This document shows, piece by piece, positions 23,461-27,312 of a stretch of 64,000 nt of DNA. A model generated the notes under the pieces. It was given only the letters and a program-made list of their open reading frames with translations, ran no database searches and was not told the origin of the DNA. Both the position numbers and the translations under genes were made by a program. The first letter of the stretch is position 1. Every line of letters begins with the position of its first letter. Source of the DNA: Flavobacterium sp. CBA20B-1 (GTDB lineage: Bacteria; Bacteroidota; Bacteroidia; Flavobacteriales; Flavobacteriaceae); contig NZ_CP092370.1 in NCBI RefSeq assembly GCF_028473145.1, positions 310,001 through 374,000 on the forward strand, in the 5' to 3' direction.

Positions 23461-24054
23461 ATGAGTAATAAACCTCTCACAGTTAAACAGGAAGCTTTTT
23501 GCCAAGCGTATATGCGTTTAGGTGATAAATCTGCTGCTTACAGAGAGGTTTATTCTTGTTCTAAGATGAAGCCTGAAACTATTCATGAAAGAGCATCAAG
23601 GTTGTCAAAAGAGTACAAGGTTAATGCAAGGATAGATGAACTACAATCAAAAGCGAGAGAAATTGCAGAAAAAGAATTTCAAATCACGCACAAGGAAATA
23701 TTGAACCATCTTAATATTTTGAGAAAAGCTAGAATAGATGATTATGTTGTTTTGGAATATCGAGAAAGTACAGAACTTGATGATGATGGTTTTCCGCGTA
23801 CTAGTAGCTACCCAGTGCTAAAATTTAAGCCTTTTGATGAACTAACAGAAGAACAACTTATGTGTATCGAAAGCATTAAAGAAGGTAAGTACGGACTTGA
23901 ATTAAAATTACATGGTATTGATTGGTCAATTGAAAAAATATGTAAACATCTAGGCTTCTATGAAAAAGACAACAAACAAAAAGCAATCAACATATTTAAA
24001 CAGGAAGACCGCCAAAGCCGACTAGAGCAATTAAAAAGCAAACTTAAAGGGTAA
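23461..24054 (+). CDS. terS: terminase small subunit
   Basis: A 197-residue DNA-packaging protein of the Terminase_2 type. The N-terminal signature is LTVKQEAFCQAYMRLGDKSA followed by AYREVY and the helix-turn-helix segment RASRLSKEYKVNARIDEL. A charged oligomerisation region fills the rest. It recognises phage DNA and recruits TerL to begin packaging. Its TAA overlaps the ATG of the next gene (TAATG), so the two are coupled. Confidence 0.93.
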   Translation: MSNKPLTVKQEAFCQAYMRLGDKSAAYREVYSCSKMKPETIHERASRLSKEYKVNARIDELQSKAREIAEKEFQITHKEILNHLNILRKARIDDYVVLEYRESTELDDDGFPRTSSYPVLKFKPFDELTEEQLMCIESIKEGKYGLELKLHGIDWSIEKICKHLGFYEKDNKQKAINIFKQEDRQSRLEQLKSKLKG

Positions 24055-24500
24055 TGTTAACCGATGCCGAAATATTAGAAATGGAACAACTTATCAAAAT
24101 TGAAGAGTTGAACATTTTACCGAAAGAAGTTAACATAAACTATAAGTATTTAAAAAAGCAGTTTGAAGATCAAAAGTATGTTAACGAACAATTAGTCGCT
24201 GGTTCAAAAGGCGTAGTATTAGAAGGGGGGGCGCGTTGTTTTAGCCCTAATCAATTAGTTGTAACAGAATACGGTAGTAAGCCGATTAGCGACATTGAAA
24301 TTGGAGAACGTGTTTTGTCATTTAATCATTCCACAAATGAAACGGAATTAAAAAAAGTATTAGACAAAATTCCTCAAAAAAATGTAAAAAAATGCCTTGA
24401 AATAACATTAAAAGATGGAAGTGTTATAAGGTGTACTGAATCACATAAATTTTTTTATAAAGGTGAGTATTTAGCAATTAAAGATATTTTGAATTTATAG
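24054..24500 (+). CDS. terL: TerL N-terminal fragment fused to split-intein N-half
   Basis: 148 residues. Residues 1-61 are the start of a large terminase, ending in VVLEGGAR, the first half of a Walker A loop. At Cys62 an intein begins: CFSPNQLVV (block A), ISDIEIGERVLSF, and GSVIRCTESHKF (block B with the T-x-x-H motif). The frame stops at residue 148. The missing GKT half of Walker A lies on the ORF starting at 25018, after the C-terminal half of an intein. The 87-residue N-half is the size known for natural split inteins such as gp41-1. This fragment must be joined to its partner by protein trans-splicing to make active terminase. Confidence 0.92.
   Translation: MLTDAEILEMEQLIKIEELNILPKEVNINYKYLKKQFEDQKYVNEQLVAGSKGVVLEGGARCFSPNQLVVTEYGSKPISDIEIGERVLSFNHSTNETELKKVLDKIPQKNVKKCLEITLKDGSVIRCTESHKFFYKGEYLAIKDILNL
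24237..24500 (+). other. intein 1, N-terminal half (IntN, 87 aa)
   Basis: Runs from the splice-junction codon TGT at 24237 (Cys1) to the stop codon. The extein residue before it is Arg of GGAR. Blocks A and B are present. Confidence 0.9.
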
Positions 24501-24502
24501 TT

Positions 24503-25027
24503 ATGGATAATGAAAAATTAATATGGAAAAAAGTAAAAGGATATTCAAGATATGAATATTCAAATACTGGATTGATTAGATCTACTAATTATAAAAACTC
24601 AAATAGAAAAGTAATTCTTAAACCTGCTCTTGATGGAGGTTATTATAAAACAGTTTTACTAAATGATGATAATAAATATAAAACAGTCCGGGTTCACGTA
24701 GTAATAATGAATTCAGAGCAGAATAAACCATCGTTAAAACATGAAGTTAATCACATAGATGGCAATAAATTGAATAATAGACCTGACAATCTGGAATGGC
24801 TCACGCATTCTGAAAACATTCAACATTCTTTTGATAATAAACTTCAAATTCCATTAAAGGGAGAAAGCAATCCTGCATCAAAATTAACTAGAGACCAAGT
24901 TGACTTTTTAAGAAACGAAAAGAGAACAAAAGGAAGGTTTTGGGGCAGAAATAAATATGCGTTAGAATTCGGCGTATCCGCTAAACATATTCAGGAGATA
25001 GTAAACGGTAATGTTTTATGGAAATAG
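24503..25027 (+). CDS. free-standing HNH homing endonuclease between split-intein halves
   Basis: A 174-residue HNH endonuclease. The NUMOD4-like start is WKKVKGYSRYEYSNTG and the HNH_3 core is HEVNHIDGNKLNNRPDNLEW. A C-terminal DNA-binding segment (ASKLTRDQVDFLR...) contains a helix-turn-helix-like part (LEFGVSAKHIQEIVNG). It starts two bases after the stop of the TerL N-fragment and overlaps the ATG of the C-fragment by 10 bases, in a third reading frame. It sits exactly where an in-frame endonuclease domain would lie in a normal intein. It should cut intein-less terL genes at the Walker A site and promote intein spread (inference). Confidence 0.92.
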   Translation: MDNEKLIWKKVKGYSRYEYSNTGLIRSTNYKNSNRKVILKPALDGGYYKTVLLNDDNKYKTVRVHVVIMNSEQNKPSLKHEVNHIDGNKLNNRPDNLEWLTHSENIQHSFDNKLQIPLKGESNPASKLTRDQVDFLRNEKRTKGRFWGRNKYALEFGVSAKHIQEIVNGNVLWK

Positions 25028-25146
25028 ATTTCGAAAATATTGAATCTATCAAATTAATAGACGTTCCTATTGTTTATGATATTGAAGTAGAGGATAATTC
25101 TAATTTTTTTATTGAAACAAATTCAGAGCCAATTTTAGTACATAAT
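25018..25146 (+). other. intein 1, C-terminal half (IntC, 43 aa)
   Basis: Contains VYDIEVEDNSNFFIE (block F) and ILVHN (block G) with +1 Ser of the extein. The layout resembles the C-half of gp41-1-type split inteins. Confidence 0.9.
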
Positions 25147-27312
25147 TCAGGAAAAACTTATTCTAGTCTTTACTTCATATTATACATCTGTTTACATGTT
25201 GAAGAAACATGCGTTATTAATATCGTACGTGAAACATACAACGAATTTAAAACAACACTGTATTTAGATTTCAAAAAGATATTGCGTGAATTCGGTTTAC
25301 CAAATCCATTTGAAACTGCTAAAGATGTACAATCGTTTTACATCGGTCGCAATCAAATAAATTTCATGGGAGCCGATCAACCAAGTAAGGTGCACGGTGC
25401 AACATCTGACTATTTATATTTTAATGAAGTTCTTACCATTGATCAGGCAGTATTCAAAAACCTTACAATGCGTTGTAATAAGTTTTGGATATCGGATTTT
25501 AACCCGTCTGTAACTGAACATTGGATATTTAATGAAGTAATCACACGTGATGATGTTGGGCATTTACGCTCAACATTCAGAGGTAATCCACATATTCCTA
25601 TTGGTCAAAAAATAGAAATATTAAATTCTGAACCATGGCTTCCAGGATCTTATATTGTTGAAGATGATATTATCAAATGCTTTAATAAGAAAACCGGAAA
25701 AGTTGAGCCAATATCAGATGATAACCAACCGCCTCCGCACCCGAAAAATATCAAGCAGGGTACAGCGAATGAGTTCTACTGGAAAGTATATGGCTTAGGA
25801 TTACGCGGCGCAATGACCGGCGTTATTTTCTCAAATGTTGAGTATGTAACCAAATGGCCAGAAGATATTGCATGGACATATGGTCTTGATTTTGGTTTCA
25901 CTAATGACCCAACCGCATTAACTAGATTTGGTGAAGATGATCAGAATATATGGATTGAACTGTTGCTTTACGAACCAATTGACCATCCAGATGATTTAGA
26001 TACAGCATTTGTTAGCCTCAAGGTTGAAAAAGATATTCCAATTACCGCAGATTCATCTGATAAATACACCGGTGAAAACAAAGGAACTGTTGAAATGGTC
26101 AGATCATTAAAAAAGAAAGGATATGCCATTAAAAAGGTTTCTAAAAACAAAGGTGTTGTCTATTGGATTGGTTCAATGAAAAAAAAGAAAATTCATCTGG
26201 TGATAAGAAATGAGAAGTTAGGAAAGTTCGTAAAGATCGAGCAGCAGAATTACAGATTTAAAGAAGTTAACGGAATACCAATAAACCAACCAATAGATAA
26301 ATACAACCACATGTGGGATAGTTGTTTTGTAGGCGATACATTAGTCAAAACCGATAAAGGGGTAAAATGTATAAAAAACATCGCTATTGGAGATTATGTG
26401 TACACTTCTGGAGGTTTAAATTTGGTAAATCATGTTTTTAAAAACGGAATCAAGAAAGTTAGAAAATACACATTAATTCTCGAAGGTAAAACACTAGAAT
26501 TAGAGTGTACCGAAAATCATAAAATAAAAACAAATAAAGGATGGATAGAGATTTCAAAATTGAAAGAGGGGATGACGGTTTACTTAAACAAGAATTCAAC
26601 GGAAAATGTTACAAACTTTATAAAAACGAACGATACTTTTCAAGAGGGAACAAAAGAATGCATATCGACGTTTGGGAATTCTTTAATGGAAAAATACCCA
26701 AAGGATTTCATGTTCACCATAAAGACAATAACCCGCATAATAACAGAATTGAAAATTTGGAGTTGCTTGAAGGTGCTTTACATATATCAAGGCATACGAA
26801 AGAAAGAGTTCAAACGAATAAAAAATGGTTTGAAGATTTTATTTCAAAAGGTGTTAAGTCAGCAAAAGACTGGCATGGTTCGCCAGAAGGAATTAAATGG
26901 CATAAAGAACATGCAGAGAAATTCAATTTTGGTTCAAAAAAATATGGGCTATCCAAATGCAAATCCTGTAATAAAGAATTTGAAAAGAGTAACATTGACC
27001 ACCAATTTTGCTCAAACAAATGTAAATCAAAGCACAGAAGAGCAATCGGAAGTGATAACGTCACTAAAATATGCCCAAGTTGCAACAAAGAATACACAAC
27101 CAACAAATATAGTAGAGGCAAAACTTGTTCGCTTACATGTAACTGGGCTCTACGAAAGAGAGGTCTTTGATTTGTCTGTTGATAATGAGCACGAATATTT
27201 TGCAAATGGTATTTTAGTTCATAACTGTAGATACGCTCACATGGCATTTAATACACCGCTTACCTTACACCAAACCACCGAAACATTGAATGAATTGGGT
27301 ATTAATTATTAG
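25018..27312 (+). CDS. terL: split-intein C-half + TerL C-fragment containing a second intein
   Basis: 764 residues. Residues 1-43 are an intein C-half ending ILVHN, followed by extein Ser44-GKT, which completes Walker A (EGGAR|SGKT). Then come the ATPase (YLYFNEV Walker B region, WISDFNPS coupling motif) and the nuclease domain, with GLDFGFTNDP (first Asp) and ITADSSDKYTG. After HMWDS, a second intein (residues 436-736) interrupts the last nuclease motif, which continues as CRYAHMAF. Removing both inteins and adding the N-fragment gives 61 + 392 + 28 = 481 residues, a normal TerL size. Neither ATPase nor nuclease centre exists before splicing. Start ATG 25018 overlaps the HNH gene, suggesting coupled translation. 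Confidence 0.93.
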   Translation: MEIDFENIESIKLIDVPIVYDIEVEDNSNFFIETNSEPILVHNSGKTYSSLYFILYICLHVEETCVINIVRETYNEFKTTLYLDFKKILREFGLPNPFETAKDVQSFYIGRNQINFMGADQPSKVHGATSDYLYFNEVLTIDQAVFKNLTMRCNKFWISDFNPSVTEHWIFNEVITRDDVGHLRSTFRGNPHIPIGQKIEILNSEPWLPGSYIVEDDIIKCFNKKTGKVEPISDDNQPPPHPKNIKQGTANEFYWKVYGLGLRGAMTGVIFSNVEYVTKWPEDIAWTYGLDFGFTNDPTALTRFGEDDQNIWIELLLYEPIDHPDDLDTAFVSLKVEKDIPITADSSDKYTGENKGTVEMVRSLKKKGYAIKKVSKNKGVVYWIGSMKKKKIHLVIRNEKLGKFVKIEQQNYRFKEVNGIPINQPIDKYNHMWDSCFVGDTLVKTDKGVKCIKNIAIGDYVYTSGGLNLVNHVFKNGIKKVRKYTLILEGKTLELECTENHKIKTNKGWIEISKLKEGMTVYLNKNSTENVTNFIKTNDTFQEGTKECISTFGNSLMEKYPKDFMFTIKTITRIITELKIWSCLKVLYIYQGIRKKEFKRIKNGLKILFQKVLSQQKTGMVRQKELNGIKNMQRNSILVQKNMGYPNANPVIKNLKRVTLTTNFAQTNVNQSTEEQSEVITSLKYAQVATKNTQPTNIVEAKLVRLHVTGLYEREVFDLSVDNEHEYFANGILVHNCRYAHMAFNTPLTLHQTTETLNELGINY
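26323..27225 (+). other. intein 2 (301 aa, continuous) in TerL nuclease motif
   Basis: Starts with CFVGDTLVKTDKG (Cys at 26323-26325, block A) and continues with LELECTENHKIKT (block B). It ends with VFDLSVDNEHEYFANGILVHN-type blocks F and G at 27225, with +1 Cys (27226). The residues between about 26,600 and 27,130 show no recognisable endonuclease in this frame; that stretch is occupied by an HNH ORF in another frame. There is no stop codon in the intein frame. Confidence 0.9.
26541..27170 (+). CDS. HNH endonuclease nested out of frame inside intein 2
   Basis: A 209-residue frame shifted by -1 (equivalently +2) from terL and fully contained in intein 2. It shows an HNH_3 core (KGFHVHHKDNNPHNNRIENL, then ELL and a His-rich continuation) preceded by a typical N-terminal segment (MHIDVWEFFNGKIP). 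It is followed by two treble-clef/zinc-finger-like units (CKSCNKEF...FCSNKCK and CPSCNKEY...CSLTC). The real start could be ATG 26541 or the internal ATG of MHIDVW near 26660. Its end overlaps intein codons of the C-terminal splicing domain, so the same bases encode both proteins. Confidence 0.88.
   Translation: MDRDFKIERGDDGLLKQEFNGKCYKLYKNERYFSRGNKRMHIDVWEFFNGKIPKGFHVHHKDNNPHNNRIENLELLEGALHISRHTKERVQTNKKWFEDFISKGVKSAKDWHGSPEGIKWHKEHAEKFNFGSKKYGLSKCKSCNKEFEKSNIDHQFCSNKCKSKHRRAIGSDNVTKICPSCNKEYTTNKYSRGKTCSLTCNWALRKRGL

What the first reader, a model, noticed from the sequence alone, without database searches (positions are those of the whole stretch)
26323..27225. HNH endonuclease encoded out of frame inside a continuous intein
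Intein 2 runs without a stop from Cys (26323) to the terminal Asn (27225) in the terL frame. A 209-codon HNH plus zinc-finger ORF (26541-27170) lies inside it in another frame. Normal inteins carry the endonuclease in frame. Both ORFs look functional at the overlap ends: the HNH's last zinc knuckle (CSLTC) shares bases with the intein's VEAKLVRLHVTGLYE strand, and the intein frame through the HNH core stays open for about 175 codons of odd composition. In DNA this AT-rich, a random frame should meet a stop roughly every 15-20 codons, so selection to keep both frames open is likely. That would be a homing element with overprinted endonuclease.
Basis: partly seen in the sequence, partly recalled or inferred. 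Interest (0 to 1): 0.94.

Follow-up and report, generated by a model that had tools for sequence, protein, structure and literature searches.

The report
Endonuclease overprinted inside terminase intein
In the DNA-packaging gene of a bacterial virus, one stretch of DNA reads in one frame as an intein (a protein insert predicted to splice itself out) and in a second frame as a predicted DNA-cutting enzyme that likely copies the insert into other viruses, and the same double reading recurs in dozens of other such genes.

Summary
Confirmed, and it is a class, not a one-off. Window 26323-27225 is a continuous terL intein; an intact 209-aa HNH/zinc-knuckle ORF (26541-27170) lies inside it one frame away. 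The intein frame has 0 stops across the HNH (about 4-6 expected; P about 1e-4). Of 162 loci with this HNH, 116 have intein halves around it: 87 (window included) are one unbroken ORF in the same relative frame, one is in the other frame, 28 are on separate ORFs. All 76 intein frames scanned match Pfam Intein_splicing. Of 95 loci with both halves in this frame, 88 have no stop within the HNH, 7 have four or more, none lies between. HNH catalytic residues are invariant in 88 of 88. Selection keeps the HNH protein and an open intein frame; the linker looks like a by-product. The same HNH family also sits between split intein halves, or free-standing downstream of intact terL. Close relatives (91-97%) lack both inteins. 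Most likely a homing intein with an overprinted, internally started endonuclease; splicing, expression and cutting are untested. Prior art: a passage on brucellaphages (2015) and intein-less 'ShiLan' insertions (2025).

The parts
25018..27312 (+). terL C-terminal ORF (764 aa): C-half of intein 1, TerL body, intein 2, TerL C-terminus
   Evidence: phrog_2 terminase 1.1e-25
26323..27225 (+). intein 2, continuous, inserted at MWDS|C(RYAH), which I take from recall to be the TerL nuclease motif
   Evidence: site empty in 7 of 7 close relatives inspected
26323..26592 (+). N-terminal splicing part (Hint), residues 1-90, pLDDT about 96-98
   Evidence: Foldseek of the whole intein model to gp41-1 intein 6qaz E 3e-8, TMt 0.82
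26593..27102 (+). linker in the intein frame (residues 91-260), lower-confidence, mostly helical; by-product reading of the HNH core
27103..27225 (+). C-terminal splicing part (Hint, blocks F and G)
26541..27170 (+). overprinted HNH/zinc-knuckle endonuclease ORF (209 aa), -1 frame of the intein; ATG lies on the W codon of the intein motif HKIKTNKGW
   Evidence: AlphaFold mean pLDDT 93.7
26655..26768 (+). HNH_3 core (residues 39-76); H59, H60, N72 and nearby H81 invariant in the family
26958..27140 (+). Cys knuckles (residues 140-161 and 178-200)
26541..26592 (+). 5' zone where both frames encode confidently modelled protein
   Evidence: in relatives, intein-frame identity over the first 15 aligned HNH codons 0.209 vs 0.170 null
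27103..27167 (+). 3' zone where both frames encode confidently modelled protein (last zinc knuckle / Hint C-strand)
   Evidence: last 15 codons 0.218 vs 0.180 null
24054..24500 (+). TerL N-terminus (P-loop GGAR|) plus N-half of split intein 1 (Cys at 24237), then stop
   Evidence: (TIGR01445 1.1e-7)
24503..25027 (+). free-standing NUMOD4-HNH between the halves of split intein 1
25018..25146 (+). C-half of split intein 1, ending VHN|SGKT

Best explanation
Intein 2 of this phage terL is continuous and a predicted HNH endonuclease is encoded inside it in an overlapping -1 frame, and the whole likely works as a homing intein with an overprinted endonuclease. Shown: one stretch of DNA keeps two frames open, the Hint splicing parts are complete by sequence and model, the HNH catalytic residues are intact, and the arrangement and frame recur in 87 loci. 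Inferred: ribosomes on the terL message make TerL with the intein, which cis-splices, while internal initiation makes the HNH (at the GGATGG of the intein's GW motif in this clade, at Shine-Dalgarno sites in others). The HNH would cut or nick intein-free terL near the insertion site, and repair would copy in the intein with the HNH. Selection keeps the HNH protein and an open intein frame; the translated linker is presumably tolerated because splicing removes it.
For: 0 stops in the intein frame over the HNH, P about 1e-4. 87 of 116 loci with both intein halves are continuous in the same frame. Bimodal stop counts: 88 of 95 loci with 0, the other 7 with 4 to 14 (one of the 88, L117, has a single TAG just after the HNH). 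Split and free homologues at neutral expectation: 7.15 vs 7.32 and 7.17 vs 7.40. 76 of 76 scanned intein frames match PF14890 at E up to 0.01. HNH position-3 excess. Catalytic H59/H60/N72/H81 in 88 of 88. HNH model pLDDT 93.7; Hint halves above 90 with a weaker linker. SD core upstream of the HNH in 17 of 38 loci that start off the GW motif vs 3.9 expected. Both terL sites empty in 6 of 6 relatives 91-97% identical, and the second site in a seventh, partial one. The +1 residue is Gly in those relatives and Cys here, as co-conversion would leave it.
Against: No expression, splicing or cleavage data. For the window's own clade (start on the GW motif) SD frequency is at chance (4 of 38 vs 4.0), so initiation there is only inferred. 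No phage pair that differs only by intein 2 was found. Spread was not tested by comparing intein and TerL trees. No solved structure matches the HNH model confidently (best sequence match I-HmuI, E 0.0077). The absence of A after the start codon in 76 of 76 overprinted loci (13 of 26 split have A) follows from the open frame itself and is no independent support.
Confidence: 0.83

Rival explanations
1. The HNH is a packaging partner of the terminase, as proposed for HNH proteins next to terminases (Kala et al. 2014, seen only as cited in the PMC4422536 passages), and the overlap merely keeps it in the packaging operon.
For: The HNH family is strongly tied to terL, and free-standing members sit directly downstream of a terL with an intact end (9 of 12 F loci; phages PAE1 and SN1 as annotated).
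Against: Close relatives (91-97% TerL identity) have no insert at either terL site. The HNH lies between intein halves in 116 of 162 loci, and a more distant overprinted HNH occurs in a DNA methylase gene (L160).
Confidence: 0.08
2. The HNH is reached by programmed -1 frameshifting from the intein frame, giving an intein-HNH fusion rather than a separate protein.
For: The HNH is in the -1 frame of the intein in 87 of 88 continuous loci.
Against: In-frame start codons with SD sites in other clades (17 of 38 vs 3.9 expected) fit internal initiation. ATG choice at the GW motif leans the same way (Gly codon GGA in 25 of 29, against 9 of 16 in split loci and 489 of 1870 in exteins), though it is conditioned on a start codon and the rows are related. 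A stop in the HNH frame lies two codons upstream of the window's ATG. The one-frame bias can come from the +1 frame of these HNHs being stop-poor (about 7 stops, against about 20 in the +2 frame, in split and free loci).
Confidence: 0.06
3. Relic: the HNH is no longer expressed and only the intein frame is selected.
For: Intein-frame openness alone would follow from the need for TerL.
Against: HNH catalytic and first-knuckle residues invariant across 88 loci; substitutions concentrate at HNH position 3.
Confidence: 0.03

Closest known systems
[quoted passage not shown] passages read)
   Same: HNH out of frame inside a terL intein; direct precedent
   Different: No analysis of selection, relatives or mechanism in the passages read; an accession I recalled was not in the phage collection, so homology was not tested
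ShiLan domain / Pacc40 hidden HNH in mycobacteriophage DNA methylases (PMC11855218, Genes 2025; text parts 1-4 of 6 read)
   Same: HNH with zinc fingers encoded out of frame in an in-frame insertion with no stops; disjunct distribution
   Different: That insertion has no detectable splicing domains; here a full Hint intein is present and the host gene is terL
Split inteins in fractured genes with an endonuclease between the halves (Dassa et al. 2009, PMC2677866, seen only in reference lists, content recalled; phage MIJ3 PolB, PMC6892783, passages)
   Same: Endonuclease ORF between intein halves; intein 1 of this same terL has that layout
   Different: Intein 2 is continuous, with the endonuclease overlapping the intein frame
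Inteins with the endonuclease in the same polypeptide, e.g. cyanophage CL131 dCTP deaminase (PMC6293099; passages read)
   Same: Intein plus homing-type endonuclease
   Different: There the endonuclease is described as part of the inserted polypeptide; here it is a separate protein in another frame

Membership tests
Intein | N- and C-terminal splicing blocks, Cys1, block B TxxH, terminal His-Asn and +1 Cys/Ser/Thr | tested here: met
   (C1, T63, H66, N301 invariant in 76)
Intein | Continuous in frame with host; host joined in empty alleles | tested here: met
Intein | Protein splicing activity | not testable with these tools
HNH homing endonuclease | HNH_3 domain and catalytic residues | tested here: met
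   confident model but no confident solved match
HNH homing endonuclease | Sequence-specific cutting of the empty site and copying | not testable with these tools
   only sporadic presence in relatives
Intein with in-frame endonuclease domain | Endonuclease in the intein polypeptide | tested here: not met
   HNH in another frame
ShiLan-type hidden HNH insertion | Out-of-frame HNH in an open in-frame insertion | tested here: met
ShiLan-type hidden HNH insertion | No intein splicing domain | tested here: not met
Split intein / fractured gene | N and C halves on separate ORFs | tested here: not met
   intein 2 is one ORF; intein 1 of the same gene does meet it

The most novel reading that the evidence does not exclude
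One HNH family at one terL site exists in three genomic states: free-standing beside intact terL, overprinted inside a continuous intein, and between the halves of a split intein. Overprinting may be the missing link by which inteins gain an endonuclease without an in-frame fusion, and by which continuous inteins become split inteins.
Probability: 0.4. Interest if true: 0.87.

Novelty: new variant of a known kind. Interest (0 to 1): 0.76.

Why it matters
Inteins are usually described as carrying their endonuclease in frame, so that nuclease and splicing domain share one chain. Here the two are separate proteins sharing the same bases, in loci whose record titles name Bacteroidota, Bacillota, Pseudomonadota, Actinomycetota, Patescibacteria and archaea (mostly metagenome-assembled) and in many viral contigs. 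Annotation can hide it: in three named phages only terL is annotated over the HNH. It gives a large natural set of long overlapping genes with matched non-overlapping homologues, so the cost of dual coding and the origin of split inteins become directly testable.

Tried and rejected
Sequencing error or compensating indels: rejected, the same frame in 87 loci. Chance open frame: rejected. Recoded stops: not needed, the standard code is open throughout; one relative, L117, has a single TAG. A conserved functional linker in the intein frame: little support (0.253 vs 0.237 over 300 overprinted pairs; split control 0.216 vs 0.209 over 281 pairs). Multiple switches between overprinted and split: parsimony gives 5 changes on a quick tree, but one clade of split forms is not rejected (24 of 26 S rows, L117 and L120 left out; p-AU 0.559, the held tree scoring higher), so I claim neither number nor direction of switches. 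The same test for the overprinted rows did not finish. The HNH model found no confident solved relative. A nucleotide search of plasmids found nothing. A nucleotide search of phages with terL found 12 records at 60-80% identity, none covering 80% of the query.

Literature: 10 of 10 searches used. Passages were read in PMC4422536, PMC6145125, PMC6293099, PMC8228797, PMC5418858 and PMC6892783; of the 11 papers listed, 7 were not opened. A bioRxiv survey of actinobacteriophage inteins with 'non-canonical architecture' (10.1101/2025.01.02.630785), cited by PMC11855218, is not held and may hold related cases.

Limits of the counts. 'Overprinted' loci were chosen by an open frame, so 0 stops in that group is by definition; the fair test is the 95 loci chosen only by both intein halves lying in relative frame 1. 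The intein HMMs were built from nested loci. Of 175 loci, 162 had an HNH hit (the other 13 are L003-L015); 128 passed score and length cuts; 117 remained after de-duplication. Four contig-truncated loci (L062, L065, L084, L101) were counted as overprinted. Some of the 87 are near-copies; 79 overprinted rows remain after de-duplication at a score cut of 110. Three of those 79 had no usable start context and were left out. Two of the 28 'split' loci are borderline: L117 (one TAG) and L120 (break near the HNH start).

Full report
Observation. The window's terL gene carries two inteins. Intein 2 (26323-27225) is in one open frame with the TerL body and C-terminus. Inside it, one frame away, lies a 209-codon ORF with an HNH_3 domain and two Cys knuckles. 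The intein is the +1 frame of the HNH. It has 0 stops inside the HNH, the third frame 29. Codon permutation, recoding with the codon usage of window genes and within-gene synonymous shuffling give 0 stops in 2, 2 and 7 of 20,000 trials. The 18 other window ORFs examined have 6.3-11.3 stops per 100 codons in their +1 frame (same call).

Both products look real. The intein frame matches Intein_splicing, Hint_2 and the intein C-terminal model. Its AlphaFold model has Hint halves (residues 1-90, 261-301) with pLDDT above 90 and a weaker, mostly helical linker (residues 91-260). It matches the gp41-1 intein best (TMt 0.82). The HNH frame gives mean pLDDT 93.7. No solved structure matches it confidently by fold; by sequence the best is I-HmuI at E 0.0077.

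Relatives. A close search found an HNH of 40% identity in a viral contig, nested in the same relative frame inside a terL-like ORF (L002). A homologue search gave 58 proteins. A profile of 39 sequences (37 of those 58, the window and L002) was scanned against viral and genome contigs. Of 162 loci with the HNH, 99 have the +1 frame open through the whole hit. With profiles for the two intein halves, 116 loci have both halves around the HNH. In 88 they are in one ORF: 87 in the window's relative frame (the window itself is L001) and one, L163, in the other frame, with a distant HNH. In 28 the halves are on separate ORFs. All 76 intein frames given to Pfam (75 relatives and the window) match Intein_splicing. 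Of these 76, 71 have RY, and one more RF, within eight residues after the intein, so they sit in the same TerL motif, with the exact point varying by up to three codons (read; that this is the TerL nuclease motif is recalled). L160 shows the same layout in a DNA methylase (N6_N4_Mtase 2e-12; Intein_splicing 6.8e-8, 32.9 bits against a cut-off of 35.8).

Selection. Of 95 loci in which both intein halves lie in relative frame 1, 88 have no stop in that frame within the HNH and 7 have 4 to 14; none has 1 to 3. Homologues of the split (26) and free (12) kind carry 7.15 and 7.17 stops on average, against 7.32 and 7.40 expected from synonymous shuffles. So openness is specific to the continuous state. 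In overprinted loci HNH codon position 3 diverges 1.5 to 2.9 times as much as positions 1-2; in split loci 1.6 to 5.0 times. HNH residues H59, H60, N72, H81 and Cys 140, 143, 157, 161 are invariant in 88 of 88 overprinted loci; the second knuckle is missing in 40 of them (gap at 178). Intein-frame identity in the HNH core is close to the shuffled null (0.253 vs 0.237), but at the two ends it exceeds it more (0.209 vs 0.170; 0.218 vs 0.180), while split controls do not (0.152 vs 0.148 at both ends; 300 and 281 pairs). Hence two proteins are constrained at the ends, and in the core one protein plus an open frame.

Expression. In 38 of 76 overprinted loci the HNH start falls on the Trp codon of the intein's GW-type motif; in the window this is GGATGG with an A-rich lead. 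Glycine before that Trp is GGA in 25 of 29, against 9 of 16 in split loci and 489 of 1870 in the exteins. This comparison is conditioned on a start codon, and the rows are related. In the other 38 loci, 17 have a Shine-Dalgarno core 3-12 nt upstream, against 3.9 expected; in the GW group 4 against 4.0. Internal initiation is therefore supported in other clades and inferred in this one.

Mobility. Six relatives with TerL 91-97% identical have both sites empty (GGAR|SGKT and MWDS|GRYAH), and a seventh, partial one has the second site empty; the five more distant loci were not inspected. The window has Cys where the relatives have Gly, as expected if the +1 nucleophile came with the intein. A search of 296 related genomes found TerL in four, the window's own and three others at 58-59% identity; two of those show an uninterrupted second site (L184, L186), the third (L185) has an internal stop.

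Three states of one HNH. Besides the overprinted and split states, 9 of 12 'free' loci have the HNH directly downstream of a terL-like ORF with an intact end (judged from the printed C-termini; only L125's was run on Pfam). L034 has it between terS- and terL-like ORFs, L130 follows a terS-like ORF, and in L128 the terL ORF stops at the motif. Of seven named phages looked at, TJE1, Highwayman and LS06-2018-MD07 are overprinted, CL2 is split, and in PAE1, SN1 and Exiguobacterium phage vB_EauM-23 no intein half was detected. On a quick tree of 117 HNHs the states are clustered. A single split clade is not rejected, so direction and number of switches stay open. The window itself combines a split intein 1 at the P-loop with an overprinted intein 2.

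Prior knowledge. The kind has been noted: brucellaphages (PMC4422536, passages) and, without an intein, ShiLan and Pacc40 (PMC11855218, parts 1-4 of 6 read) and Applejack (PMC12613952, start of the abstract in a listing). In ten searches of the held library I found no description of the class, its frame rule, the selection evidence or the three states; several listed papers were not opened, and one relevant preprint could not be read.

Noticed in passing
24054-25146: Intein 1 of the same terL is split: N-half ends at a stop (24500), a NUMOD4-HNH ORF (24503-25027) follows, and the C-half ORF starts 10 bases before the HNH ends. TerL thus likely needs trans-splicing at the P-loop and cis-splicing at the second site.
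   Followed up: partly
L117:3973-3975: In a Methanimicrococcus locus the otherwise open intein frame holds a single TAG just after the HNH stop; in an archaeon this could be a pyrrolysine codon, or decay.
   Followed up: no
L125:1879-4149: Spirosoma locus: terL, then the HNH, then a second copy of the TerL C-terminus in the +1 frame (LGDCFRYALVNFEYSTYKQI), as if an insertion inside terL had been repaired by a duplicated end.
   Followed up: partly
L163:1531-3210: A weakly intein-like ORF with an HNH ORF nested in the other (+2) frame; distant HNH. Pfam finds no family in the long frame at 0.001.
   Followed up: partly
L152:2338-4110, L159:505-2649: DNA methylase genes with an out-of-frame HNH and no splicing domain found by Pfam, like the published ShiLan insertions.
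   Followed up: partly
L149:247-4452: A 1402-aa ORF with a LAGLIDADG domain, a weak intein splicing match (26.8 bits, under the cut-off) and an out-of-frame HNH.
   Followed up: no
26810-27247 minus strand: A 145-codon open frame on the opposite strand across the same region; no evidence that it is a gene.
   Followed up: no
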